Shown here piece by piece: positions 6,114 to 24,788 of a DNA stretch of 64,000 nt (the first letter of the stretch is position 1; the number at the start of each line of letters is the position of its first letter). Location of the stretch: positions 1 to 64,000 of the forward strand of contig LWRO01000006.1 in NCBI GenBank assembly GCA_001657325.1, given 5' to 3'. This stretch comes from Geitlerinema sp. BBD 1991-9 (GTDB taxonomy: Bacteria > Cyanobacteriota > Cyanobacteriia > Cyanobacteriales > Geitlerinemataceae). The translations under genes were made by a program, and so were the position numbers. Below the pieces are notes generated by a model that ran no database searches, had not been told where the DNA came from, and saw only the letters and a list, made by a program, of their open reading frames with translations.

Positions 6114-9100
6114 CTACTCCAAATCCAACGTCAACTGCACGCAGTTCTCGGGTAGAGTGAGAATTGCCTCCTCGTCCCAGGGGTCTTCGTAGCGTTTCCG
6201 ACGACGACCCTTCGATCGATCGCGCAGTTCCTGATTGGCTTTATCGATCGCCAACCACTGCTCGAACACCATCCATCGATCGTCTTGCGGGGGTTCGATA
6301 CGATAGACGCGAACGGGCTTCTTGTCGTGACGCTCGCAGCGCAAACACGTCAACCCATAGCCGAGCTTGTCTAAAAACCGTCGTAGAATGACAATCGGCG
6401 TTGAATTTTTCGCCAGTCCGATTCCTGTAATCGTCTTGATATCCGCGCGGTGTTTGAGTGCGATCTCCGCCATCGCCTGTAAATCGAGATCGGTGTTGCG
6501 TAACTCCCGTTGCGGGTTGGCTAACAATGTCGGAAGACCCAAAACTTCGATCGTTCCCACCGTCGCCCCCAATTGCGATCGATTGAAATCGGGTTGGAAA
6601 ATCTGTCCTCGACCTTGACGCACGAGCTTACGAGCCACGCGGAGATCGCGCTCGGCGAGATACTCCCGTCCGATCGTCAAGAAATAATGCAGGCGCAATT
6701 TGTCGTACCATCCCTTATCGTCCCGCTGTACCAATTCCCGGGTGACGGGGACGCGATAGCGCCGATACAGATCGTACTTGCGCAACGCTCGACGATCGGC
6801 AGGGGTTTTCACCAAGGTTTTTTTCAGTTCGCGGTACTCGATGTCGTTCAACGTCGTTGCGTCAGCGATGGTCTGACAATCCGCTTCGTAGTTCTGGCGC
6901 TGGACTTCGGCGATCTGACGTTGCAGCGTTTCTGATGGCGATTCTGCGGCCTTGTTTTTCCCAGTGTTGCGCTTGGAGCGTCGCGTTTTTTTAGCCGGAG
7001 GAATTTCGACGATCTGGTGTCCTTCAGCCGCCAAAGCCGTCACGACTGAATCGCGATATCGAGCCATCGTCGCGTTTAAACGCACGGCCATTTTCGCCCA
7101 ACAGGTCAGAGATTCTGCTTGGAAACCCATTTCGAGATCGCCGAGAGACTCGAAGTCTGACTGTTGTAGCAAACGCACGTTCAATTGCATCAGGCGCTTT
7201 CCGGAAGCCAGCAAGCTCGGAATCGAGGTCGAGCCGTTCCCTACTTTGTTAAAGCCGTACCGAGCCACCCATAAATGGCGGGGGACGTTGTCTCGAACCC
7301 GAGCCATGGCTTGACGAACGCTGTTTTCTGACTGCACCCCTTGGGCGATCGACCAAACGGAGGTGAAACGACCGCGTAGGTCGATGCTAACTCCGGTTTC
7401 GATCGAAGGCGATGCGAACACGACATCGTAATTTTTCAACAGTCGATCGAGCGTCCCCATACAGCGATACGCTGGGTGCGTCGGTTCGGTGACGGATTCG
7501 GCATCGACACGCAAAATCTTCAGATCGGGAAACTGTTTGGAGAAATAGGCTTCGAGCGATCGCGTACTCCAAGGACTCGTCAACTTTTGCGCCGACAGAC
7601 AGACAAAGGGCTTGCCACCGTTGCGAACGTACTCTTCCAAATCCCGAACCATCCGTTTGGGGGTACTTTCGGTGTAGTGGTGAATCTGCCAACCTTCATC
7701 TAGACCCGGTTGCCAATCGTTTTGAACGATAAACGGTGCAGACTTAATCCCCGCCAAAGCCAACAGATAATCGAGGGATGTATCGCTCAAGTCGGCATCG
7801 GCAGCGAACACCTGTCCGGCTTCGTCTATGGTGTTTTGCATGAGGGCTTTGAGCGATCGCAAAACAGCCACGCGATGACTGCGGCAGGTGTCGGAGTTCA
7901 AACCGTGCCACAGCACTTGTTCGACTTCGTCGAGGATAACGACGGCATTCGTCCAATCTTCGGGATCGAATTGAGCTTGGGAGTCTGGGTGTAGGGAGTC
8001 GATACACAAACCGTACCCGATGCCGACTTCTTTCGGATCGCTGAGGTGGCTGATGTAGGGCAGGCCGAACCGCTGACAGAGGGCTTCGACGAGTTGGACG
8101 CGGTGGCCGATGACGAGGACGCGCTGTCCTTTTTCGATCGCTCGCTGGACGACGCGCTGCAAGAATTCAGTTTTACCGGTACCTTTCGGAGATCGAATAC
8201 CGATCAGTGCAGCGGTGTCGGGAATGAGGAGTTCGGGTAAAAACCGCTGCTTGAGGTGTATATCGGGGGTATAGGTCAGACGCGCGAGCGATCGAGCGTG
8301 CCAGGTGTGAAAAGGTAAGGCAGTTTGAAAGGCTCGATCGAGTGCGTCTCGGCCTTGGCTGGCGATCAGGTCGTCAACCCCTTTGCCGTCTTCGATATCC
8401 CAGGTGACGACTTTGACTTCGCAACCCGCTTGTTCGAGGAGATAGCTGGTTTGTCGGACGGCTGCGTTAACGGCTTTGATGGTGTTCGGCTTGCGATCGC
8501 GATCGAAGACGATGTACACGGGACGCTTGGTTTTCGCCAGCATATCGAGTTGGGGAATCAAGCGCGGCTTACCGATGCGGTTGCCCCATTCGTCCCGTTT
8601 GACGCGGTAGCCGCCGTTAATCCCCGGAAGGGCAATGGCTGCATAGCCGGCACTGAGGAGTGCGCCTGCTTTTTTCGCCCCTTCGGTGATACACAAGGGG
8701 ACGGAGTCGTTTTCGAGCAACCACTGCCAAAAGCCAAAGTCCGATCTCGATCGATCGAGATCGGCTTGGGAGAGCGGTACCCCAGCTCGATCGGCAATGG
8801 CTTGCCACAGGTGTGGAGGAACCCGTAACGCGAACAATCCCGTGGCGGTTTTGGGAGGATGTTCGTATTTGATGGTTTTGCAACGTTCGGTTGACGTAAC
8901 CGTGGGTCGATGATTCGTGCGGGGCTGGTTCGGTTTGAAACACCCCCACAAATCGTCTTCTCCCGTTAGGAGATCGACCCCCGAACACCACCAACCTCCT
9001 TCTTCCAAGTGGCGGTAGCGCTCGAGGAGCGAACTCGAGAGCCGACCGTCGTTCCGACGGGGAAGATCGGCAGAATAGAACAAGTAGTCGTAGGGGAGTG

Positions 9101-9179
9101 TCCCGTCGAGAGAAACGACGTTCAAGCGGGTTAACTCCTCATCGACCTGGCTGTTCGACCATTCAACGAGATAATTCAC
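6114..9179 (-). CDS. CyRepA1-family plasmid replication protein (DUF3854)
   Basis: A 1021-residue protein of the cyanobacterial CyRepA1 replication family, known from cyanobacterial plasmids and, in some genomes, the chromosome. Residues 1-120 are family-specific. A DUF3854/Toprim-like primase fold follows at about 120-285, with PLCITEGAKKAGALL, FDRDRK near 225 and GKGVDDLI near 265. An SF-type ATPase comes next, with Walker A GIRSPKGTGKTEF (328-339) and Walker B AVVILDEVEQV (412-422). A basic stretch KKTRRSKRNTGK is near residue 735. Primase plus helicase in one chain suits an initiator. The start ATG at 9179 lies just downstream of a strong inverted repeat. The frame is intact, so it may still be active, although its flanks look chromosomal. 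Confidence 0.88.
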   Translation of the reverse strand: MNYLVEWSNSQVDEELTRLNVVSLDGTLPYDYLFYSADLPRRNDGRLSSSLLERYRHLEEGGWWCSGVDLLTGEDDLWGCFKPNQPRTNHRPTVTSTERCKTIKYEHPPKTATGLFALRVPPHLWQAIADRAGVPLSQADLDRSRSDFGFWQWLLENDSVPLCITEGAKKAGALLSAGYAAIALPGINGGYRVKRDEWGNRIGKPRLIPQLDMLAKTKRPVYIVFDRDRKPNTIKAVNAAVRQTSYLLEQAGCEVKVVTWDIEDGKGVDDLIASQGRDALDRAFQTALPFHTWHARSLARLTYTPDIHLKQRFLPELLIPDTAALIGIRSPKGTGKTEFLQRVVQRAIEKGQRVLVIGHRVQLVEALCQRFGLPYISHLSDPKEVGIGYGLCIDSLHPDSQAQFDPEDWTNAVVILDEVEQVLWHGLNSDTCRSHRVAVLRSLKALMQNTIDEAGQVFAADADLSDTSLDYLLALAGIKSAPFIVQNDWQPGLDEGWQIHHYTESTPKRMVRDLEEYVRNGGKPFVCLSAQKLTSPWSTRSLEAYFSKQFPDLKILRVDAESVTEPTHPAYRCMGTLDRLLKNYDVVFASPSIETGVSIDLRGRFTSVWSIAQGVQSENSVRQAMARVRDNVPRHLWVARYGFNKVGNGSTSIPSLLASGKRLMQLNVRLLQQSDFESLGDLEMGFQAESLTCWAKMAVRLNATMARYRDSVVTALAAEGHQIVEIPPAKKTRRSKRNTGKNKAAESPSETLQRQIAEVQRQNYEADCQTIADATTLNDIEYRELKKTLVKTPADRRALRKYDLYRRYRVPVTRELVQRDDKGWYDKLRLHYFLTIGREYLAERDLRVARKLVRQGRGQIFQPDFNRSQLGATVGTIEVLGLPTLLANPQRELRNTDLDLQAMAEIALKHRADIKTITGIGLAKNSTPIVILRRFLDKLGYGLTCLRCERHDKKPVRVYRIEPPQDDRWMVFEQWLAIDKANQELRDRSKGRRRKRYEDPWDEEAILTLPENCVQLTLDLE

Positions 9180-12296: not shown

Positions 12297-12399
12297 AGGG
12301 TGCATCTCAATTTCGTAGAATGACCCCTCCGCCTTTGGCACCTCCCCTTAGCCAGGGGAGGATGGGTGGGGTTGCGATCGCAAAAGTAAGATGCACCCT
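12297..12399. mobile_element. Miniature inverted-repeat element, family 2, copy A
   Basis: Ends AGGGTGCATCT (12297-12307) and AGATGCACCCT (12389-12399) are perfect 11-base inverted repeats. The interior carries CACCTCCCCTTAGCCAGGGG, part of a common bacterial repeat. The right end contains the first ATG of the following gene. Copy B with the same ends is at 31486-31632. Confidence 0.75.
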
Positions 12400-13776
12400 A
12401 TTAAAAGTCTGTTTAAGAGAAATTTAAACGATTCAAATCCTAAAAATATGACCTACGCAGATCCACCCAATCTTGATTTCGCAGATCTAGAAAAAAACTA
12501 TCAAAAAAGAACGTATTGCTTCGATTTATATCAAAAGAAGCTAGAGAAAGACAATCCTCGATTGCTGAACTGGATCGGTTCGATCGATTACTCAGGCTAT
12601 GTTAGAGAACAGTGTCTGAACAACCTAATTGCAAACTATCAGATCGGTGACGAGAATAGGATATTACTAAGATTAGAAGATTGGGTTCCTCAAATTCAGA
12701 AAATTGCAGAACAGTGGATATTGGATAACTTCGATCGACTGTCCATCAAACAAATTAATTTAAACTATCGATTGATTTTATACTTATCTCGAAAAAAGAG
12801 ACTTCAGAACAGTCAAGGCCTGCAATTTATAAATTCATGTTTGTTAAAGAAAGCTGAAGAACTCACTCGCAAACAGTTCTATGCTCTGAATTCTAACTTT
12901 CGTAGATATTTGTATTTGCTTGGCGTGCCTAGAATCCAGAAACTTCGCCAATGGATGCTGTTTGACAAAGATCCCTTTAATCGTCTTCTTTTTCTCAAAC
13001 TGCTTTCATACGATCGACTGACTCAAGAAGAGCGTGATATCTTACAATTTGACCGATCCGCACTTGTCAAAAGACGTGTCCTGAGCTTTGAACTTGAAAA
13101 TGATATTATTCCCGATCTGGAGAAATTAATTACCTTAATCGTGGATCGGAGTCAGAGCGTTAGATTAATTGCAAGATATTTCTTGTTAGAGTATTACAAT
13201 ATCAATGCTTACGATTTGTACAAAAATAGAAGTGACTATGCCTTTTATTATATTGCCGATTACTCTAAAGAAGAGGATATTGATTATTTATTGGATGGTG
13301 TATTTTCTCAGAACAATCGAATCAAATATATATGCTTAAAGGCAATTTGTCACATCGATCCGAATTATCTACAACTCTTAGATCTCAAGCAAATCATTCT
13401 AGAAAATCAACGAATTCGTAGTTTGGTTGTTCGTTATCTTCCTTCGATTTTATCGATCGACGAACTCATTGACTATAAAGAAACTCTAAGACAAGCAACA
13501 CCCAATGGAGTATTAATCTATCTCAATACAATTTTGGGTAAGTCATATTGGCATTTTGTTGACCAGTTACTGTCTTTATTGATTGAAGATATGTCACGAG
13601 ATGATATTGCCTTTATTCGCCAGCGATTGTTTACCCAGAAACAGGTATATACATCTGTTTCACTTATTCTAAGAACGAGTATCTCCGATCGGCTCAATAT
13701 ACTGAAAACCCAAAAAGACCCTCGACTGAAAACAATTATTCAAAAAATTGAATTTATACTTAAAAATGCACGATAA
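12391..13776 (+). CDS. AT-rich helical-repeat (HEAT-like) hypothetical protein
   Basis: A 461-residue, almost entirely alpha-helical protein that I cannot assign to a named family. Repeating units such as YVREQCLNNLIANYQIGDEN, DWVPQIQKIAEQWILDNF and RSQSVRLIARYFLLEYYN look like degenerate HEAT repeats, usually scaffolds for protein contacts. No enzyme motif, signal peptide or membrane helix is visible. Base composition is markedly more AT-rich than the flanking genes, with many AAA, ATT and TTA codons, suggesting horizontal origin. The listed ATG lies within the terminal repeat of the miniature element at 12297-12399; the next ATG at 12448 (MTYADPPNL) may be the ancestral start. Neither has a good ribosome site. 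Confidence 0.68.
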   Translation: MHPIKSLFKRNLNDSNPKNMTYADPPNLDFADLEKNYQKRTYCFDLYQKKLEKDNPRLLNWIGSIDYSGYVREQCLNNLIANYQIGDENRILLRLEDWVPQIQKIAEQWILDNFDRLSIKQINLNYRLILYLSRKKRLQNSQGLQFINSCLLKKAEELTRKQFYALNSNFRRYLYLLGVPRIQKLRQWMLFDKDPFNRLLFLKLLSYDRLTQEERDILQFDRSALVKRRVLSFELENDIIPDLEKLITLIVDRSQSVRLIARYFLLEYYNINAYDLYKNRSDYAFYYIADYSKEEDIDYLLDGVFSQNNRIKYICLKAICHIDPNYLQLLDLKQIILENQRIRSLVVRYLPSILSIDELIDYKETLRQATPNGVLIYLNTILGKSYWHFVDQLLSLLIEDMSRDDIAFIRQRLFTQKQVYTSVSLILRTSISDRLNILKTQKDPRLKTIIQKIEFILKNAR

Positions 13777-14018: not shown

Positions 14019-17000
14019 ATGAGCATACTGGACTTTTTGAATATCTTCGACCTGGATACTAACACTTTCCTCGACGATCTCCGAGACGAGACCGAAGGTT
14101 CCCCCACACTACCCAACGGAATCGCCTCAGGAGACACCGGCCAAACCAGTACTATCTTGTGGACGCGCAGCACCGAGACAGACTTCGTCGCGATCGAATA
14201 CGCCACGACCCCGGATTTTAGCGAAATTCTCGGCACGCTCTCCACCGAAGTCAGCGACCCCAACCAACCCGTCAAACTCGAACTGAGTGGACTGCAACCG
14301 AACACCGAATACTACTACCGCGTCACCGATGGCGAAGGGAGTTCTCAAATCGGTCGGTTCAAAACCGCAGCCGAAGTCGGAACAGTCGAAGGATTGCGAT
14401 TTGGTGTTTCCGGCGACTGGCGCGGCGAACTCTCCCCCTATCCCGCAATTACCAACGCGGACGAAAAAGACCTCGACTTCTTCGTTCTCCACGGCGACAC
14501 CGTCTACGCCGACTTCCCCTCCCCCGCTCTCAACAAGCCTCAAGCCGAAACCCTCGATGAATTTCGCCTCAAACACGCGGAAGTCTACGGCGAACGCGCT
14601 GGACTTAACACCTGGGGAGAGTTACGCGCCTCGACAAGCGTGTTCGCCACCATCGACGACCACGAAGTTACCAACGACTTCTCCGGCGGCGCACCCGCAT
14701 TTACCGATCCCCTCGGACGCTTTGGAATGGGAAGCGAACTCATCAACGACACGCCTCTCTACGACAACGGGTTGCAAGCGTTCCAAGAGTACAATCCGAT
14801 TCGAGACGAGTTTTACGGTGAAACTGGAGATTCCCGCACCGAAGGCGAACGCAAACTCTACCGTACTCAAACTTACGGGAGCGATGCGGCTGTCTTTATT
14901 CTCGACAGTCGATCGTTCCGCGACCCCGCACTTCCCCAGGCCGATCTCAACGATACGCTCGAAATCCTAGAGTTTCTCGGCGCAAGCTTCGACCCAAGTC
15001 GCACCATGTTAGGACGAGTGCAAGTCGAAGACCTCAAACAGGACTTACTGGCTGCCGAAAATGCAGGTGTCACCTGGAAATTCGTGATGGTTCCCGAACC
15101 GATTCAGAACTTGGGTCTCATCGCAGCAGGCGATCGATTTGAAGGGTACGCCGCCGAACGCACGGAAATCCTGAACTTCATCGATACTAACGATATCGAT
15201 AACGTGGTCTTCGTTGCGGCGGACATCCACGGAACCGTCGTCAACAACTTGACGTATCAACTCGAACCCCTCGGCCAGCAAATTCCGACCAACACCTTTG
15301 AAATCAGCACGGGTTCCGTGGCGTTTGACGCACCTTTCGGACCGACGGTCATCGATCTGGCCGCCGATGTTGGCTTGCTGTCCCCCGAACAGGTGACGTT
15401 CTTTAACAGCCTCCCCCGGGAAGGACAAGATGCGTTTATTGAAGAACTGACCAACGCACAGTTACAATCGCTCGGTTACGATCCGATCGGACTCCAAGGA
15501 TCGCCCATCAACGCCCAACTCCTCCAAGGTGGCTACGTCGCAACGCAAACCTTCGGTTGGACGGAGTTCGAGATCGATCCGAACACCCAGGAACTTCTCG
15601 TGACCACCTACGGCATCGACCCCTACACCGAAGCCGAACTCAACACGAATCCCGAAACCATTCTCGATCGATCGCCTGAAGTTGTTTCTCAATTCTCGGT
15701 TACACCGGAATTCGACACCGCGCGATTCGCCTCCTTCAACGCCTCCCTCAACCGCAACACGGAAGGCCAACTGATCGCCGACCTCTCCACACCCGAAAAT
15801 GCCCAGGCGCAGACGATCGCCGAAATTATCCAACGCAATAGCCCCGATGTCGTCCTCGTCAACGAGTTTGACTTCGATGCGAACGGACAAGCGGCGCAGT
15901 TGTTCCAAGACAACTACCTCTCCGTCAGTCAAAACGGCGCGTCTCCCATCAACTACCCCTATCGCTACGTCGCCCCCTCCAACACCGGAATTGCTTCTGG
16001 CTTTGACTTCGACAACAACGGATCGATCGTCACCACTCCCGGCGAAAACGGCTACGGAAACGATGCGTTCGGTTTTGGAAACTTCCCCGGACAGTTCGGG
16101 ATGGTGTTGTATTCCAAATACCCCATTGAAACTGACGAAATTCGCACCTTCCAAAACTTCCTCTGGAAAGATATGCCGGGTGCGTTACTCCCTGACGACC
16201 CCGACACCCCCGAACCCAACGATTGGTATTCCGAGGAAGAACTCGAAGCGTTCCGCCTGTCGTCCAAGAGTCATTGGGACATTCCCGTCAACATCAACGG
16301 TCAAACGATTCACGTTCTCGCCAGCCATCCCACGCCTCCCGTATTCGACGGGCCCGAAGATCGCAACGGCCGCCGCAACCACGACGAAATTCGCTTCTGG
16401 GCAGATTACGTCACCCCCGATCGAGGCGATTATATTTACGATGACGCAGGAAACACGGGCGGCTTGACTTCAGGCGATCGATTCGTCATCGTGGGCGACC
16501 AAAACGCCGACCCCTTCGACGGCGACAGCACCAACAACGCCATCTCGCAACTGCTAGACAATCCCACCGTCAACACCCGCGTCACACCTGCCAGTATCGG
16601 ATCGATCGATGCAACCAACCGCCAAGGTAGCAACAATCTCACGCAAACTGGAAATCCCGCCTACGACACAGCCGATTTTGGCGAAGCGGAATTTAACGGC
16701 CCCGGTAACGTGCGCGTCGATTACGTCTTGCCCTCAGAAAACCTCGAAATTACCGATGCAGGGGTGTTCTGGCCGACCGCCGACGATCCGCAATTCGGCT
16801 TAGTAGGCGATTTTCCCTTCCCCAGTTCCGACCACCGCCTGGTGTACGCCGATGTCGTCGTTGCGCCGCCTAGCGTAGATGTTCCAACTGTTTCCAGTAT
16901 CGATCGCCTCACCGTCAGCAACATCGACCTCCTCGGTGAAGTCAACTTCCCCACCGGACTCGAGTTCGGCGGTACGGAAGTCGGCGGGTTGTCGGGAATC

Positions 17001-20000
17001 ACCTACGATGCAGAACGGGGACTTTACTACAGCCTCTCCGACGATCGATCTCAAACTAACCCCGCCCGTTACTACACCCTCAACATCGATCTCAGCGACG
17101 GTAGCCTCGACAATAACGACGTGAACTTTATCGGGGTGACAACGCTTCTCGACCGCAACGGCGAACCGTTCCCCGAAAACAGCCTCGACCCCGAAGGCTT
17201 AGCCCTCACCTCCTACGGCACGTTAATTGTCTCCTCGGAAGGCGATGCGAACAACTTAGTCAACCCGTTCGTCCGCGAGTACCGCATCGACGGACAGCAA
17301 CTCGGCGAGTTCAGCGTTCCCGCCAAGTACTTGCCCACCGCCGACAACAGCAACGGCATTCGCAACAACTTAGCGTTTGAAAGCTTGACGCTGACTCCCG
17401 ACGGAAGCCGCCTGTACACAGCAACAGAAAACGCCCTCAACCAAGACGGCCCCGCTGCAACGGTTGAAACGAGCAGTCTGTCGCGCATCCTCGAATACGA
17501 CCTCGCCACGGGACAACCGGCCCGCGAGTTCGTCTACGAAGTCGAAGAAGTTCCCGACGAACCAATTCCCGCCGACGCTTTCAGTACGAACGGTTTAGTG
17601 GAACTGTTAGCCCTCGACAATAACGGAACGTTCCTCGCCCTCGAACGTGCGTTTTCTGTGGGTGTGGGTAACACCGTCAAACTCTACGAAGTCAACAGCC
17701 AAGGCGCACTCGATGTCAGCGGTGAAAACGATTTGTTCTGGGAAGAAGAAGGGATTCCTTTTGAAATCGATCCCCCGGTTCAAAAACGGTTGTTGCTGGA
17801 TTTTGCCGAGATTGGCGTAACGCCGGACAACTTAGAAGGGTTGGCGTTGGGTCCGGTGTTACCGGACGGTCGCCAATCCCTCATCGTCGTCAGCGACAAT
17901 AACTTTAACGAGACGCAATCGACGCAGTTCGTTGCGTTGGCGTTGGAATTAGACAGTATTCCAGCGGCGGTTCCGACGTTGGAAACGGTGGGATTTGTGG
18001 ACGACGAAGACGCGCCGTTTGCTGGAGATTCCGACGATCCGGCGATTTGGGTCAACTCTGATAATCCCGATAACAGCTTAGTCATTGCTACGGCGAAGGA
18101 CGGCGGTTTAGTCACCTTCGACCTCAATGGAAATCTCTTGCAACGGATTCTCCCGGCTGGGTTCGGCGAGATTCGCTATAACAACGTCGATATCGTGTCG
18201 GATTTCGATTTAGGGGAACGAACGGTCGATTTGGCGATCGCTTCTGACCGTGAAAACGACACGCTGGCGATTTGGCGCATCGACGAGAATTCTCGAGAAC
18301 TGGTCGATGTCACCTCACCGAATATCCTCGAAACCATTTTCGGGGTAGACGACGGCGAACAAACGGCTTATGGGTTGACCGCTTACACGGAGGCGGAAAC
18401 AGGAATACCTTATGTGTTCGTCAGCCAAGGCGACGGAAATCTCCTCGCACAGTTGGAGTTGGTGGCCAACGATGAAGGTCAAGTCAGCGCGAATTTGGTG
18501 CGAACGCTTTCGCTTCCCGTTCCAACCGGCGATCCTGAAGATTCGCAATCGGAAGGTTTGGTGGTGGATGTCGATCGAAACGTGCTGTACGTAGCCCTTG
18601 AAGAAGAAGTCGGCTTGCTGAAAACTGATGCGTCGCCGAACGGGAACGGTGAGTTTACGTTGGTTCAGGCGATCGATTCGGGAGACGAAACCCGATCGTT
18701 CGACGAGATCGTCGTGTTTGGCGATAGTCTCTCCGATGTCGGTAATGCTTTTATTGCCAGCAGCGGTGCGAATCCGCCTTCACCTCCCTATTTTGAAGGA
18801 CGTTTCAGCAATGGCGAACTGGTTGTCGAACGCTTGGCCCAAAGCCTGGACTTGGAAGCGTCACTTCCTGTTCTCGCTGGGGGCAACAATTTCGCTGTTG
18901 GGGGAGCAACCACTGGCTTCGGCACGTCCATCCAAGGTGCGCCCAACATCGGCGAACAAATCAACCTATACCTTAACCAAGACAGTCCCGATGCCAGCGA
19001 TTTGGTTTATCTCTACGCCGGAAGCAATAATTTCGTGCAAAGCTCGACACCTGTAGACCCTGCAACGGTCGTCAACGATATTGTCGGTCACATCACCACG
19101 TTAGCTGAGGCCGGGGCGCAAACCTTCATCGTGCCGAATTTGGGAGATTTCGGTCAGTCGCCGTTCGTGCGCTCGATCGGACGTAGTGAAGAAATTAGCA
19201 CGTCGATCGAGAACTTTAACGTCCTCCTCGATACATCGTTAGATGTCTTGGAAAGCGATTTGGGTGTTGACATTATCGAGTTAGATTTTGCTGGGGTTAT
19301 CGATGCCATTCAGGACAATCCTTCGGCGTTTGGCCTCAGTAACATTCAGGAAGCGGCATTCGATATCACCACGGGAACGGTTGTTGAAAATCCCGATGAA
19401 TATCTATTCTGGGATGATTTCCACCCGTCGGCAGCCATTCAGGAAATCGTGGCTCAAGCGGTTCGGGGAGAACTGGAAGGACTCGTTTCACCGGAATTTT
19501 CACCACTCAAAGCCGATATTGAAGGGTTGTCGATCTACGATGCGGGTGACGGCGAGGGCTACATCCTGGTTTCGAGTCAGGGGGATAGCACGTATGCCGT
19601 GTTCGATCGTGAAGGCGACAATCCTTACCTCGGTAGTTTTGTCGTCGCCGACAACGCCACCATCGACCAAGCCAATGAAAGCGATGGTTTAGATGTCGTC
19701 AGCGCGAATCTCGGCGATAAATACCCTGATGGTTTGTTGGTGGTACAAGACGGGGCTAACGATCCGCAAGCCGTGTTTGAAGATGACGAGGAGTTGGAAA
19801 ACCGCAGTACGAACTTCAAGTTCGTGTCTTGGGACGGTGTCGCCCAGGCGTTAGGCTTGTCTAGTGGAGATGGGTTGACGGGTGATGACGATGAATCTTC
19901 CGAGTCGAACGGAGATGACGAAGACGGATCGTTCGATCGATCGTCTCGCAGTCGCAATCCTATCGCCGAAGATTGGGAAATCGTGGCTACGTTTGACGCG

Positions 20001-20132
20001 CCAACTGTTGCCGGTTCGACTTCAATTTTGGAAGCAGAGTCTTCGACATTAGCGGTGGATGGGTTGGCGGTTGCGCCTGACAACCGGGAAGCGAATTTGT
20101 GGGGAAATCCTTTCGGAAACGATTCGATTTAG
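14019..20132 (+). CDS. Giant multidomain phosphoesterase: PhoD, EEP, phytase-like, beta-propeller phytase with inserted GDSL esterase
   Basis: A 2037-residue protein built from phosphorus-scavenging enzymes. Residues about 28-120 are a PhoD N-terminal domain (LPNGIASGDTGQTSTILWTR). About 125-515 form a PhoD metallophosphatase with FVLHGDTVYADF, IDDHEVTNDF and VAADIHG. About 568-945 form an endonuclease/exonuclease/phosphatase domain (FASFNASLNRN, VLVNEFDFD, IVGDQNADPFDGD, SSDHRLVY). About 955-1312 match the phytase-family esterase-like domain. About 1318-1558 begin a beta-propeller phytase (DSDDPAIWVN). A GDSL hydrolase (FGDSLSDVG, Ser1570; DDFHP, His1802) interrupts it at about 1560-1825. 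The propeller resumes at ADIEGLSIYDAGDGEGYILV. No classical signal peptide or RTX tail is visible, so the export route is unclear. A Pho box lies upstream. Confidence 0.9.
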   Translation: MSILDFLNIFDLDTNTFLDDLRDETEGSPTLPNGIASGDTGQTSTILWTRSTETDFVAIEYATTPDFSEILGTLSTEVSDPNQPVKLELSGLQPNTEYYYRVTDGEGSSQIGRFKTAAEVGTVEGLRFGVSGDWRGELSPYPAITNADEKDLDFFVLHGDTVYADFPSPALNKPQAETLDEFRLKHAEVYGERAGLNTWGELRASTSVFATIDDHEVTNDFSGGAPAFTDPLGRFGMGSELINDTPLYDNGLQAFQEYNPIRDEFYGETGDSRTEGERKLYRTQTYGSDAAVFILDSRSFRDPALPQADLNDTLEILEFLGASFDPSRTMLGRVQVEDLKQDLLAAENAGVTWKFVMVPEPIQNLGLIAAGDRFEGYAAERTEILNFIDTNDIDNVVFVAADIHGTVVNNLTYQLEPLGQQIPTNTFEISTGSVAFDAPFGPTVIDLAADVGLLSPEQVTFFNSLPREGQDAFIEELTNAQLQSLGYDPIGLQGSPINAQLLQGGYVATQTFGWTEFEIDPNTQELLVTTYGIDPYTEAELNTNPETILDRSPEVVSQFSVTPEFDTARFASFNASLNRNTEGQLIADLSTPENAQAQTIAEIIQRNSPDVVLVNEFDFDANGQAAQLFQDNYLSVSQNGASPINYPYRYVAPSNTGIASGFDFDNNGSIVTTPGENGYGNDAFGFGNFPGQFGMVLYSKYPIETDEIRTFQNFLWKDMPGALLPDDPDTPEPNDWYSEEELEAFRLSSKSHWDIPVNINGQTIHVLASHPTPPVFDGPEDRNGRRNHDEIRFWADYVTPDRGDYIYDDAGNTGGLTSGDRFVIVGDQNADPFDGDSTNNAISQLLDNPTVNTRVTPASIGSIDATNRQGSNNLTQTGNPAYDTADFGEAEFNGPGNVRVDYVLPSENLEITDAGVFWPTADDPQFGLVGDFPFPSSDHRLVYADVVVAPPSVDVPTVSSIDRLTVSNIDLLGEVNFPTGLEFGGTEVGGLSGITYDAERGLYYSLSDDRSQTNPARYYTLNIDLSDGSLDNNDVNFIGVTTLLDRNGEPFPENSLDPEGLALTSYGTLIVSSEGDANNLVNPFVREYRIDGQQLGEFSVPAKYLPTADNSNGIRNNLAFESLTLTPDGSRLYTATENALNQDGPAATVETSSLSRILEYDLATGQPAREFVYEVEEVPDEPIPADAFSTNGLVELLALDNNGTFLALERAFSVGVGNTVKLYEVNSQGALDVSGENDLFWEEEGIPFEIDPPVQKRLLLDFAEIGVTPDNLEGLALGPVLPDGRQSLIVVSDNNFNETQSTQFVALALELDSIPAAVPTLETVGFVDDEDAPFAGDSDDPAIWVNSDNPDNSLVIATAKDGGLVTFDLNGNLLQRILPAGFGEIRYNNVDIVSDFDLGERTVDLAIASDRENDTLAIWRIDENSRELVDVTSPNILETIFGVDDGEQTAYGLTAYTEAETGIPYVFVSQGDGNLLAQLELVANDEGQVSANLVRTLSLPVPTGDPEDSQSEGLVVDVDRNVLYVALEEEVGLLKTDASPNGNGEFTLVQAIDSGDETRSFDEIVVFGDSLSDVGNAFIASSGANPPSPPYFEGRFSNGELVVERLAQSLDLEASLPVLAGGNNFAVGGATTGFGTSIQGAPNIGEQINLYLNQDSPDASDLVYLYAGSNNFVQSSTPVDPATVVNDIVGHITTLAEAGAQTFIVPNLGDFGQSPFVRSIGRSEEISTSIENFNVLLDTSLDVLESDLGVDIIELDFAGVIDAIQDNPSAFGLSNIQEAAFDITTGTVVENPDEYLFWDDFHPSAAIQEIVAQAVRGELEGLVSPEFSPLKADIEGLSIYDAGDGEGYILVSSQGDSTYAVFDREGDNPYLGSFVVADNATIDQANESDGLDVVSANLGDKYPDGLLVVQDGANDPQAVFEDDEELENRSTNFKFVSWDGVAQALGLSSGDGLTGDDDESSESNGDDEDGSFDRSSRSRNPIAEDWEIVATFDAPTVAGSTSILEAESSTLAVDGLAVAPDNREANLWGNPFGNDSI

Positions 20133-20161: not shown

Positions 20162-20183
20162 GTGGGGAACGTTTGTTCCCCAC
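20162..20183. terminator. Hairpin between convergent genes
   Basis: Perfect 9-bp stem GTGGGGAAC/GTTCCCCAC with a GTTT loop in the 65-base gap between two convergent genes. Only a weak pyrimidine run (TTCTTTCC) follows, so it may be a bidirectional terminator of modest strength. Confidence 0.55.
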
Positions 20184-20197
20184 TTCTTTCCACATTG

Positions 20198-23100
20198 TCA
20201 CAGCGCATAGATTTTGACGATATTCGACAAACCCGCAAACTCAAGCTCGACTCGAGGGAAATCACCGCGATAGACAATCTTTCCGGTACACGTCTCATCT
20301 AAACGAAACTTGAGATAGCTGCCGCTATTTGCACCGATTACAGCTTGTCCTAATTTAACTTTACTACCCTGTCGATCGATCTGAATTTTGAGTTCTTGTC
20401 GGTTAAATCGATCGTCTAAAAACACCTTTAGAGCTTTTTCTTTACGAGTCACTCTGACGTTCATCGTATCGATTTGAAAACTACTTAAAGTTTCGCTGAA
20501 ATGTTGTATCTCAACGTTCGGAGGCAATCCCTCGATCGAAGCGTGTGGTTTAATTTTTTTCTGGATAGGGATTTGAGGTTGCTCTTCGATCGCGATCGGT
20601 GGAATTGGAATCCTTGCGAGATCGAGATGCCATTTTTTAGCTTTTTGCGTGAGTTCTCGATCGAGTTTTTGTGCGCGTTCTGGATTCACCCCTCGCTCGT
20701 ATTCGACTTGTTGGCGTTTCGTCGCCAGCCATCGCTGACGAGCTTCTCGCTGTTCTGCTTCGGGAATTTCTGTATTTTCAGTAAAACGTTCGTAGAATTG
20801 TAATGTGGGAACAAATTCACCGATGCGCTCGAACGTTACACCCACCTCAGATAACGTGAGATGCGATTTCCAATCAGACTGAGCCACGACTGCTTTTAAA
20901 AACGCCACGTACTGCGATCGATGGTTTCTCGCTTCGTCGGGTAATAAGCGAGAACGTGCGATTTTACGAACGATGTCCCACCGAAGCGGATCGACTTCAG
21001 GAACGTTAAACTTGCTTGAGTTAAACTTGTTTAAGCGTTCGATCGCTTCCAGCCAAATTTGAGCTTTCAGAAGATACTCAATTTCGTCCGCATAACGCTG
21101 TTGTTTTTCCAAAGCCCAGCCAATATCTTCTCGTCGATCGAGCCAATTTTTGTGAACGGGTTTTCCAGCCTCTTCCCAGATGTTTAAAATGACCGTATCT
21201 TCTTCAGCCTGTCGCAAATCAGCTAAACCTTCTGGAAATCCCCGAACTTGTGCTTTGGCAAAGTAATAGTCGTGGGTATTCACAAAATTGCAAGCGTTCC
21301 AACAGCTAACTGCTCGGGGCCAAGTTTGACTTTGAAAGAAACACCGACCTGCAATCTCCAAGAGTTTTGGATAGCTTGAAAGTTCCTCAAAAAGTATGCC
21401 TAAATTTTGCCATTGTTCGCGACTGAAGCTTCCCGTTTTTTGGGTCGAACGATCGATGGCTTTAGCATAATCGTCAATCGCTGTTTGCCAAGGTTTACTC
21501 GATCGATGTTTTTTAGCAAGATCGATGTTTTTTTCTAAAAACTGTGTAAATTGCTGTAAACGGCTTGTGGATAGCGGTCGATCGATAGCAAATTCGACGA
21601 TCGATCGTTCGATGAGATGGCCGTTATAGTGAAATGCTTCATACAAACTCTGTAAACGTTGCCAGTGCAAACCTTCCCAAAAACACACCCAAGCCTCATC
21701 GAACCGACGGAGTTCGAGAAATCGATCGCCAGCTTCTTCCCACTTTCCTTCAAACTTCAACGCATAAGCTTCACAAGATTGAGCTTCTGTATTTAACGTC
21801 AAAGAATAATAAAATTCTCGAGCGCGTCGCAACAGGTCAGGATTTTGATGAGTGTGACCGTCTTTTTCCAACTCTCGAGCATTACGATGGCGATCGTCTC
21901 GATCGAGGACTTTTAGGCTTTCACCTAAAACCAAAGTACCAACACGATTGTCGGTATTCCATACCGTCGGATTGTCTGCTTTTTCGATAAACTTTTCGAG
22001 TCGATCGAGATTGGCTAGTTTCCAAAGGGATTCTTCCCCAGTTGGTGAATCGATAATAATTAATTCTTCCGTCGCACGACTTGCGGCAACATAAAGCTTA
22101 TTAAAAAAGTATTCGAGAGCGAGATTGAGCCGAGAATTGTTTGTAATTTCTAATAAATCTAGATTTTGGTAGTGCTTGGAAAACTCATCGCCAAATTTAT
22201 AAACCACGACGAGTGGATATTCACTGCCTTTAATTTGGCTGGCACTAAAAACGTTTTTGGGTAGCTCTCTGTTCAGGGCCTCTGGGAATAGCTGTCTTAA
22301 ATTTTCATCTTGGCATACGTAATCAATTTCGCCGCCCTCATCACAGGGAACGATAAAGATTGGATCGGTATGTAAGTGATTTTTTAAATTTTCAAGAGTT
22401 AGATTTTGTCCAAAAATAAACTTTTGAGGGTCTAAGCTGTGACCGATTTTCCAGGCAATTTGAGGTTTGATTTCTCGAATCCGAAAAATAACGTGTCGCC
22501 AGAGAAGAATTGAGTTAGTAAATTGGACGATTGCAGGACTCGATCGATAGTTTGCCTCGAGTTCTTTGAATGTCATTTTTAAGTTTAGTTGGCCGTCGGG
22601 ATCTAAGCTTGCAATGACTTGTTCGTAAAAAGCAGAACGAATGCTATCCCATCGAAATCCTGTCGGATTTAGAGTTTGAAGTGGATCGCCTGCAAAGGCA
22701 AAGGGTAAACTAAAGACAGGGGAGTATAATTCATACTGAGTTAATGCGGAAAGTCGAACAATAAGCTGTAGTTCGAGTTTAGTAAAATCTTGTGCCTCGT
22801 CGCAAAAAATAGCGCTATGGCTTGCTGAATAGTAGTGTCCTTGTAAAATCGTGCGAACCAGGTCTTGATCGTCCCAATATCCCTGTTCTTCTGTTAGATT
22901 TTTATACCAGCGCCAAACTCCATGATAAATGGCTTGGAATCGATCGACCTCGATCGTTTTTTCTCGACGCGGAATTTCTTGATAAGCACTGGGGGTCATA
23001 TCTTCTAAACTATAACCCTTGATAAAAGCGCGAATGACGTGCCAACATTCGTCTGCTGAGAACTGATTGAAGGCATTTTTATAGAGTTGCTCGAAGCGAT

Positions 23101-24400
23101 AAAATGAAATATGTTTGTCGAGATCGAAGCGGCTGATTTTATAATGAGGTAGCTTGCTTAATAAAAAATCTTGAAAAGGATAAAAAAATGAATCAATTTC
23201 CGAAGCTTGACCATCAAAATCGATAAATTCATGATGATATCTGAGTAGTTTTTTGATTCCATTACGGGCAGTCTCTAAAAGTTTTTGATTATATGTTAAA
23301 AATAGTGGTTTAGGATGTTCGTTGCCGTTTTGATAGTCAAATTGCTCGACGATTTGGAAGTAACGCCGACAGCAATCAGCAAATAAGTAAAATAACATAG
23401 TTGATTTACCACTCCCCGCACGACCATTGATAAAGAGTGGTAATTTACTATTTTGCAAAATGACTTCTTCTTCGCTAGATAGAGCAAAATTAATTGCAAA
23501 ATTTTGCCCAGATTCAACTGTTAAAACTTGCTCAATTTCTCCCCATAATGTCGGATCGCTGACGAGATACTCGGGATAATATTGTCGTGAATAACGCGCG
23601 AGATCGTTGCGAGTCAAGGTTTGAGCTAGTCGATTGATGTGTTTGTCAAACAGTCCGGTGTGACGACCCACGAAATCAATTTCTTCTGGAGATGGTATAG
23701 AATTAAAGGGAGATAATAAAACAATTGAAAATGGTTCTGGACAGTCTTGCAATTCGACTAAACTATATAAAACTGCTTTGTTCGGTGAATCTTGTTTGTA
23801 TTTAATACAGACATTTTGGTAGTCAGTTTCTTGGTCTGCGATCGTTTGGGATGTTGATGCATTTGCAATGCTGTAAATCAGTTCGTGATACGTTTGCCAG
23901 AAATCTTTGACGGCTCGATCTTGAAATCGCTCGATCCAACAGGGTGTTTCATAGACCCCCCATTCCTTAGAACTGTCTTGAAAACTAGGTCGATGAGTCC
24001 AGCTTGTTAAGTCTGGAGGGAGTCTTTTATGCGAAGACACTGAGGATTTTTGTTGGAGAGTTGCGTTAATATCCCTTTCAATTTTTAAGATATCAATTGC
24101 TCGATCGAAATGAGTTCTTCCATAAGTTTCGGGATTATCTAAAAAATTTTCGTAGTCGTTACCGCCCCGCGTTAAAATATCCAAAAAACACAAAACTCGG
24201 ACATTTTGAATTTTGACGATTTTACCAATCAATCGAAAATTTTGAATAGGACGTTTCAAATAGGGGTAAATCCATTCAAAGTAGCTTTGAACGACTGGCA
24301 TTCCTTGATGTTCTATTTCATTTTTGATTGTCATGAGGCGATCGAAGATGTGATGCTCGATCGCATCGTTTTTACAGCTTTCTGTTACGTAAACGAACAT
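20198..24400 (-). CDS. Large SF1 (UvrD/TRANK1-like) helicase with helical-repeat C terminus
   Basis: An SF1 helicase-like protein of about 1400 residues. Numbering from the upstream ATG at 24412: residues 1-300 are a family-specific N-terminal region; Walker A NGRAGSGKSTML is at 329-340, Walker B AIFCDEAQDF at 534-543, motif III AGDPLQT at 574-580, and ANYRSSPAIVQF at about 620-631. SASQIKGSEYPLVVVYKF (723-740) and LYVAASRATEELIIID (773-788) complete the core. Residues about 860-1240 look like TPR-type helical pairs, and the last 100 are beta-rich. The layout recalls eukaryotic TRANK1 and uncharacterised bacterial relatives. The ATG at 24400 has GGAG six bases upstream and is preferred. No partner nuclease gene is adjacent; the function is unknown. 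Confidence 0.82.
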   Translation of the reverse strand: MFVYVTESCKNDAIEHHIFDRLMTIKNEIEHQGMPVVQSYFEWIYPYLKRPIQNFRLIGKIVKIQNVRVLCFLDILTRGGNDYENFLDNPETYGRTHFDRAIDILKIERDINATLQQKSSVSSHKRLPPDLTSWTHRPSFQDSSKEWGVYETPCWIERFQDRAVKDFWQTYHELIYSIANASTSQTIADQETDYQNVCIKYKQDSPNKAVLYSLVELQDCPEPFSIVLLSPFNSIPSPEEIDFVGRHTGLFDKHINRLAQTLTRNDLARYSRQYYPEYLVSDPTLWGEIEQVLTVESGQNFAINFALSSEEEVILQNSKLPLFINGRAGSGKSTMLFYLFADCCRRYFQIVEQFDYQNGNEHPKPLFLTYNQKLLETARNGIKKLLRYHHEFIDFDGQASEIDSFFYPFQDFLLSKLPHYKISRFDLDKHISFYRFEQLYKNAFNQFSADECWHVIRAFIKGYSLEDMTPSAYQEIPRREKTIEVDRFQAIYHGVWRWYKNLTEEQGYWDDQDLVRTILQGHYYSASHSAIFCDEAQDFTKLELQLIVRLSALTQYELYSPVFSLPFAFAGDPLQTLNPTGFRWDSIRSAFYEQVIASLDPDGQLNLKMTFKELEANYRSSPAIVQFTNSILLWRHVIFRIREIKPQIAWKIGHSLDPQKFIFGQNLTLENLKNHLHTDPIFIVPCDEGGEIDYVCQDENLRQLFPEALNRELPKNVFSASQIKGSEYPLVVVYKFGDEFSKHYQNLDLLEITNNSRLNLALEYFFNKLYVAASRATEELIIIDSPTGEESLWKLANLDRLEKFIEKADNPTVWNTDNRVGTLVLGESLKVLDRDDRHRNARELEKDGHTHQNPDLLRRAREFYYSLTLNTEAQSCEAYALKFEGKWEEAGDRFLELRRFDEAWVCFWEGLHWQRLQSLYEAFHYNGHLIERSIVEFAIDRPLSTSRLQQFTQFLEKNIDLAKKHRSSKPWQTAIDDYAKAIDRSTQKTGSFSREQWQNLGILFEELSSYPKLLEIAGRCFFQSQTWPRAVSCWNACNFVNTHDYYFAKAQVRGFPEGLADLRQAEEDTVILNIWEEAGKPVHKNWLDRREDIGWALEKQQRYADEIEYLLKAQIWLEAIERLNKFNSSKFNVPEVDPLRWDIVRKIARSRLLPDEARNHRSQYVAFLKAVVAQSDWKSHLTLSEVGVTFERIGEFVPTLQFYERFTENTEIPEAEQREARQRWLATKRQQVEYERGVNPERAQKLDRELTQKAKKWHLDLARIPIPPIAIEEQPQIPIQKKIKPHASIEGLPPNVEIQHFSETLSSFQIDTMNVRVTRKEKALKVFLDDRFNRQELKIQIDRQGSKVKLGQAVIGANSGSYLKFRLDETCTGKIVYRGDFPRVELEFAGLSNIVKIYAL

Positions 24401-24788
24401 AACTATCTCCATTTCTCACGGTGCAACGTTATCTGGCTAAAGATATTTGACGAAAAGAGTAAAGTCCAAAAATATCTTAAAAGACCCAAAAAATTTTTTG
24501 TTCGATCGAGGGTTATTCGATCGAGTCTAAAAAACGTCATTTGCAGGGTTGACGCAGTTGTCAAATAGCTGCCGAAGATTATCTAAAAAAAATTAATAAG
24601 TACTGGTCTAATTCTATCCTAAATTAATAGATGATACGATTAAATTGCAAAAAAAATTATCAATCGATCGCGGATTCAACATAAATTTGCATTTTTTTAG
24701 AATTCTTTAGTTCTTGTGCGACTTAAATCAACAAAATTTAATATAGAAATGCTACGATCGAGTCTCGTAATCGACTGTCCGAGGTTCG
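24401..24788. other. AT-rich divergent promoter region
   Basis: About 390 bases between divergent genes, rich in A and T tracts. No gene, structured RNA or repeat was recognised. A short forward frame overlapping the helicase start is a shadow. Confidence 0.55.

What the first reader, a model, noticed from the sequence alone, without database searches (positions are those of the whole stretch)
20198..24412. Stand-alone giant SF1 helicase with TRANK1-like layout
All SF1 helicase motifs are intact, flanked by about 300 N-terminal residues of unknown fold and about 550 C-terminal residues of helical repeats plus a beta-rich end. It sits alone in an accessory region beside an AT-rich helical-repeat gene and miniature elements. 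Large helicase/repeat proteins in such places are often defence-related, but nothing here proves it. It is a good candidate for an uncharacterised single-gene system.
Basis: partly seen in the sequence, partly recalled or inferred. Interest (0 to 1): 0.6.

Follow-up and report, generated by a model that had tools for sequence, protein, structure and literature searches.

The report
Vertically inherited giant cyanobacterial SF1 helicase
This is a real, intact 1,404-residue motor protein of a family that no searched library or paper names; it is passed down within some cyanobacterial families as a single stand-alone gene, shows no sign of being an anti-virus island gene, and probably couples an RNA-acting N-terminal domain to an ATP-driven helicase and a long protein-binding tail.

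Summary
The ORF is real and intact, but on the minus strand (24412 to 20198, 1,404 aa; likely start at Met5, 24400). All SF1 helicase motifs are present. Predicted models give five parts: an N-terminal b-a-a-a-b-b-b-b-a domain in the element order of RelE/ParE toxins, a second alpha/beta domain, a UvrD/HelD-like core with little room for a 2B subdomain, a TPR-type solenoid and a beta-rich end. No Pfam, NCBIfam or PADLOC model names the family. It is patchy in Cyanobacteria, yet single-copy and consistent within clades: 7/7 genomes of a sister genus at one site, 11/13 of another family. In its tree all nine families with two or more members are clades. It is under purifying selection (omega 0.14). 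46 loci of the clade share no partner gene beyond local synteny, and 129 neighbours show no recurrent defence system. So this is an uncharacterised, mostly vertically inherited one-gene helicase. The accessory-defence reading is weakened, not excluded. Best reading: an ATP-driven RNA/RNP surveillance helicase. The next nearest relatives carry a RelE/ParE-like domain before the motor; here that domain is inferred from topology and three invariant residues only.

The parts
20198..24412 (-). whole ORF, 1,404 aa; likely true start at 24400 (Met5)
24101..24400 (-). N-terminal domain, residues 1-100 counted from Met5; element order b-a-a-a-b-b-b-b-a as in RelE/ParE (predicted); invariant R56 (24233-24235), R78 (24167-24169), Y83 (24152-24154)
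   Evidence: no significant profile match to ParE
23492..24100 (-). second alpha/beta domain and linker of unknown fold
22013..23491 (-). SF1A helicase core, UvrD/HelD-like
23402..23425 (-). motif I (Walker A) GRAGSGKS
22787..22801 (-). motif II DEAQD
22676..22690 (-). motif III GDPLQ
22541..22552 (-). motif IV NYRS
22220..22231 (-). motif V KGSE
22076..22093 (-). motif VI YVAASR
20633..21919 (-). TPR-type alpha-solenoid (predicted)
20207..20539 (-). beta-rich C-terminal domain (predicted); missing in the f11 clade
20162..20183 (.). perfect 9-bp inverted repeat between the two convergent genes, terminator-like on the plus strand

Best explanation
A single-gene, mostly vertically inherited ATP-driven SF1A helicase/translocase of some cyanobacterial families. 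The motor core hydrolyses ATP and moves on single-stranded nucleic acid. The N-terminal RelE/ParE-like domain contacts, and perhaps cuts, RNA (most likely mRNA, by analogy on the ribosome), and the C-terminal solenoid with its beta-rich end recruits the protein or RNP substrate. In the cell it would act as an RNA/RNP surveillance or processing factor, resembling Schlafen in plan (RNase-like front, SF1 motor behind). Shown: intact motifs, purifying selection, descent with host families, no conserved partner gene. Predicted: the order of domains. Inferred: RelE kinship, RNA as substrate, the cellular role.
For: Motifs intact and invariant. Motor superposes on UvrD (Z 22.1) and HelD (Z 22.0). N-domain element order with pLDDT 83-96. 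The next nearest relatives have in the same place a domain that matches a ParE profile (hhalign P 3e-5, probability 73%), and another ORF of the same order has PF05016 over its cut-off just before UvrD. Invariant R56, R78, Y83 recall RelE R61, R81, Y87, whose mutation lowers cleavage (PMC2807027). Vertical descent: every family with two or more rows is a clade; 11 of 13 genomes of family f28 carry it in single copy. Purifying selection on all parts. No conserved partner or defence linkage.
Against: The window clade's N-domain has no significant sequence match to ParE/RelE, and its fold alone was not searched. Nothing here shows that the substrate is RNA rather than DNA. Patchy presence and two broken copies do not suit an important housekeeping role.
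Confidence: 0.4

Rival explanations
1. Single-gene anti-phage defence: the C-terminal solenoid senses an invader, the SF1 motor acts as switch or translocase, and the RelE-like N-domain shuts down translation (effector, NTPase, repeat sensor, as in STAND/Avs proteins).
For: The plan effector-NTPase-repeats is typical of immune proteins (own knowledge). The solenoid evolves fastest (omega 0.22 vs 0.10 for the motor). Patchy presence. A more distant relative lies on a plasmid near a GmrSD_N-DUF3696 pair, and one homologue lies at the end of a contig classed as viral.
Against: No recurrent defence neighbours, fixed sites within genera, tree follows host families, no PADLOC model fits.
Confidence: 0.25
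2. DNA repair or replication accessory helicase of the UvrD/Rep type, with the solenoid as a docking arm.
For: UvrD, Rep and PcrA are among the best structural rows.
Against: All SF1A cores look alike, so this says little; N-domain and solenoid have no counterpart in UvrD; motifs IV and V are only about 105 residues apart, leaving little room for 2B (comparison from own knowledge); absent from many complete genomes.
Confidence: 0.2
3. HelD-like factor that frees or recycles stalled RNA polymerase.
For: M. smegmatis HelD gives the tightest superposition among the top rows (Z 22.0, 3.6 A over 345 residues).
Against: Its Z is tied with UvrD, and HelD's polymerase-entering extensions were not tested for.
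Confidence: 0.06

Closest known systems
RelE/ParE-UvrD fusion helicases (e.g. L092: ParE_toxin 6-82, UvrD 218-474) and their longer relatives with TPR-type repeats (L041, L050, L107-L112)
   Same: N-terminal small domain, UvrD-like motor; the longer ones also have helical repeats behind it
   Different: The window clade has an extra domain of about 150 residues before the motor, a beta-rich end, an N-domain with no significant ParE match, and only about 25-30% identity in the motor
Schlafen (SLFN11/14)
   Same: RNase-like front plus SF1 motor in plan (own knowledge); SLFN11 superposes on the motor with Z 18.1
   Different: Pfam SLFN-g3 helicase is below cut-off (19.9 vs 24 bits); the Schlafen RNase fold was not found; Schlafen has no such solenoid (own knowledge)
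GajB of Gabija
   Same: UvrD-like motor (weak PADLOC match, E 2.8e-4)
   Different: About 500-aa models against 1,404 aa; no GajA-like gene beside it
HelD
   Same: Motor fold (Z 22.0)
   Different: RelE-like front and long solenoid; HelD arms not tested
TRANK1
   Different: Could not be compared here

Membership tests
SF1A UvrD/Rep-type helicase | Motifs I, II, III, IV, V, VI with catalytic residues | tested here: met
   Read in the sequence and invariant in 24 homologues
SF1A UvrD/Rep-type helicase | Curated Pfam cut-off of PF00580 | tested here: inconclusive
   20.9 bits for the whole protein, 23.1 for residues 5-800; cut-off 23
RelE/ParE toxin superfamily (N-domain) | Significant profile similarity | tested here: inconclusive
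   No Pfam hit; hhalign P 0.02-0.07; the relatives' N-domains do match (P 3e-5)
RelE/ParE toxin superfamily (N-domain) | Fold | tested here: inconclusive
   Element order agrees, but the domain alone could not be searched; the motor fills the fold list
RelE/ParE toxin superfamily (N-domain) | Ribosome-dependent RNA cleavage | not testable with these tools
   Needs an assay; invariant R56, R78, Y83 only suggest it
Gabija GajB | Full-length match and adjacent gajA | tested here: not met
   17.9 bits over part of the motor; neighbours are a phytase fusion and a methyltransferase
Defence-island gene | Recurrent linkage with defence genes | tested here: not met
   129 neighbours of 26 loci, no recurring system; no matched background set was run
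Schlafen | SLFN helicase model over cut-off | tested here: not met
   19.9 vs 24 bits
Schlafen | Schlafen RNase core | not tested
   N-domain could not be searched alone
TRANK1 | Kinship with the eukaryotic protein | not testable with these tools
   No eukaryotic proteins on hand
TPR proteins (solenoid) | TPR motif models | tested here: inconclusive
   None in the window protein, weak hits in up to 4 of 21 homologues; Z 8-10 with very high rmsd

The most novel reading that the evidence does not exclude
A new class of one-protein, vertically inherited RNA surveillance or immune helicase in cyanobacteria: a divergent RelE-type ribonuclease driven or gated by an SF1 motor and aimed by a fast-evolving solenoid, a prokaryotic counterpart of Schlafen in plan that lies outside defence islands.
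Probability: 0.15. Interest if true: 0.8.

Novelty: new variant of a known kind. Interest (0 to 1): 0.45.

Why it matters
A 1,400-residue ATP-dependent machine is kept under purifying selection in several cyanobacterial families without a name or known task. If the N-domain is a RelE-type RNase, it would join a toxin fold to a motor in one polypeptide without an antitoxin gene, and would show that such conflict-type parts can become vertically inherited cell machinery. Guilt by association cannot find such genes, because they have no conserved neighbours.

Tried and rejected
Pfam, NCBIfam and PADLOC on the whole protein: only weak matches, mostly to the motor core. PDB by sequence, single and profile: nothing relevant. 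Direct profile-profile test of the N-domain against ParE: not significant. A second RelE-like copy at about residues 140-260 was considered from its element order; hhalign gave nothing. Empty-site test by synteny of the flanks in sister genera: homologues of the flanking genes are scattered or missing, so no clean empty site. Search among phages: no match. Papers on TRANK1-like or RelE-UvrD-TPR proteins of bacteria: none found; DefensePredictor's main text holds neither 'UvrD' nor 'helicase'. The PADLOC neighbour scan has no background control. Whole-bacteria distribution could not be surveyed: the one genome-contig scan found a single locus.

Full report
OBSERVATION. The ORF lies exactly at 20198-24412, on the minus strand, 1,404 aa. 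Most homologues begin at its fifth residue (MFVY/MYVY), so the start is probably 24400; residue numbers of the N-domain below count from there. Motifs I to VI of SF1 helicases are present and their catalytic residues are invariant in 24 homologues. The gene is single: its stop faces the stop of a 2,037-aa phytase/PhoD/lipase fusion, with a perfect 9-bp inverted repeat between them, and it diverges from a methyltransferase gene.

ANATOMY. Two AlphaFold2 models cover the protein. The first (residues 5-800, mean pLDDT 84.6) has an N-terminal domain of about 100 residues (block means of pLDDT 83-96) ordered E-H-H-H-E-E-E-E-H, a second alpha/beta domain, and the motor. The motor superposes on UvrD (Z 22.1) and on HelD (Z 22.0). 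Motifs IV and V are only about 105 residues apart, which leaves little room for the 2B subdomain of UvrD (comparison from own knowledge). The second model (residues 781-1404, mean pLDDT 85.0) is an alpha-solenoid followed by a beta-rich domain. The solenoid's best rows are mostly TPR proteins, Z about 8-10 with very high rmsd, so 'TPR-type' is a description, not a membership.

N-TERMINAL DOMAIN. The order of elements is that of RelE/ParE toxins (own knowledge). By sequence the window clade shows no match: no Pfam hit to any such family, hhalign P 0.02-0.07. Two facts make RelE likely all the same. First, the next nearest relatives, UvrD-type proteins of the same order, have in that place a domain that matches a ParE profile (hhalign P 3e-5, probability 73%), and another ORF carries PF05016 over its cut-off directly before UvrD. 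Secondly, among the residues invariant in 19 homologues are R56, R78 and Y83: at the start of one central strand, just after the last strand, and in the following helix. In E. coli RelE, mutation of R61, R81 or Y87 to alanine significantly lowers cleavage (PMC2807027). This is a resemblance, not a test.

DISTRIBUTION AND DESCENT. In 59 genomes (the own one counted), 25 have a match (18 of 46 genera); a few of these are the more distant RelE-like-UvrD relatives. In an even draw of 386 genomes of the phylum, about 20 carry a close homologue. Presence is clade-wise: 7 of 7 genomes of genus g6 at one site beside a conserved block that includes a fructose-bisphosphatase gene, 11 of 13 genomes of family f28 in single copy, six genomes of g38; six other genomes of the window's own family lack it. 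In a maximum-likelihood tree of 38 proteins all nine families with two or more rows are clades (8 changes, the minimum possible). The gene therefore descends mostly vertically, with losses. Two broken copies were seen, in G007 and G027.

SELECTION AND COMPOSITION. In genus g6 omega is 0.137 for the whole gene, 0.08 for the N-domain, 0.10 for the motor and 0.22 for solenoid and beta end; four neighbouring genes have 0.025-0.047. All parts are constrained, the tail least. GC of the gene is 0.41 against 0.52 for its flanking genes, with L035 the largest gap among 51 loci, where the mean gap is 0.03. That may be local AT drift or an old transfer; the tree gives no support to a recent one, since the window's protein groups with its own family at 100/100.

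NEIGHBOURHOOD. 46 loci of the clade and 5 of its relatives were compared. Genes recur mostly within genera or families, apart from widespread paralogous groups. Of 129 neighbours of 26 loci, Pfam shows histidine kinases, response regulators, CHAT, ABC, Uma2 and metabolic genes; PADLOC gives scattered, mostly generic matches and no recurring system. No background set was run, so a weak enrichment cannot be excluded.

MECHANISM. Most likely the motor translocates on nucleic acid, the N-domain contacts or cuts RNA, and the solenoid recruits the target. The motor's competence is shown by sequence only; RNA as the substrate rests on the RelE-like reading; the biological role is inference.

VERDICT. 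The protein belongs to an unnamed family, read here as a variant of RelE/ParE-UvrD fusion helicases, and is not a demonstrated defence system.

Noticed in passing
window 14019-20132 (+): 2,037-aa protein that joins PhoD phosphatase, endonuclease/exonuclease/phosphatase, two phytase-type and GDSL lipase domains in one chain.
   Followed up: partly
   Followed up: partly
window 12391-13776 (+): AT-rich 461-aa ORF with no Pfam match and no match in 58 related genomes.
   Followed up: partly
window 6114-9179 (-): 1,021-aa protein with DUF3854, next-door kind of gene often seen on mobile elements (own knowledge); not examined.
   Followed up: no
L075 (Crinalium plasmid pCRI9333.06): A more distant relative of the motor lies on a plasmid near a GmrSD_N gene and a DUF3696 ATPase gene.
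   Followed up: partly
L074:184-4536: Homologue at 33% identity at the end of a contig classed as viral; an IS-type transposase gene separates it from a terminase gene.
   Followed up: partly
L160, L161 (G130): Two copies in one genome, the second on an 87-kb contig that may be a plasmid; they are sisters in the tree.
   Followed up: partly
L029, L039, L148: The f11 clade lacks about the last 300 residues, beta-rich end included.
   Followed up: no
plasmid collection, hits H3-H30: A UvrD-helicase gene with weak similarity to the motor (24%) is common on Shigella and some E. coli plasmids; not read.
   Followed up: no
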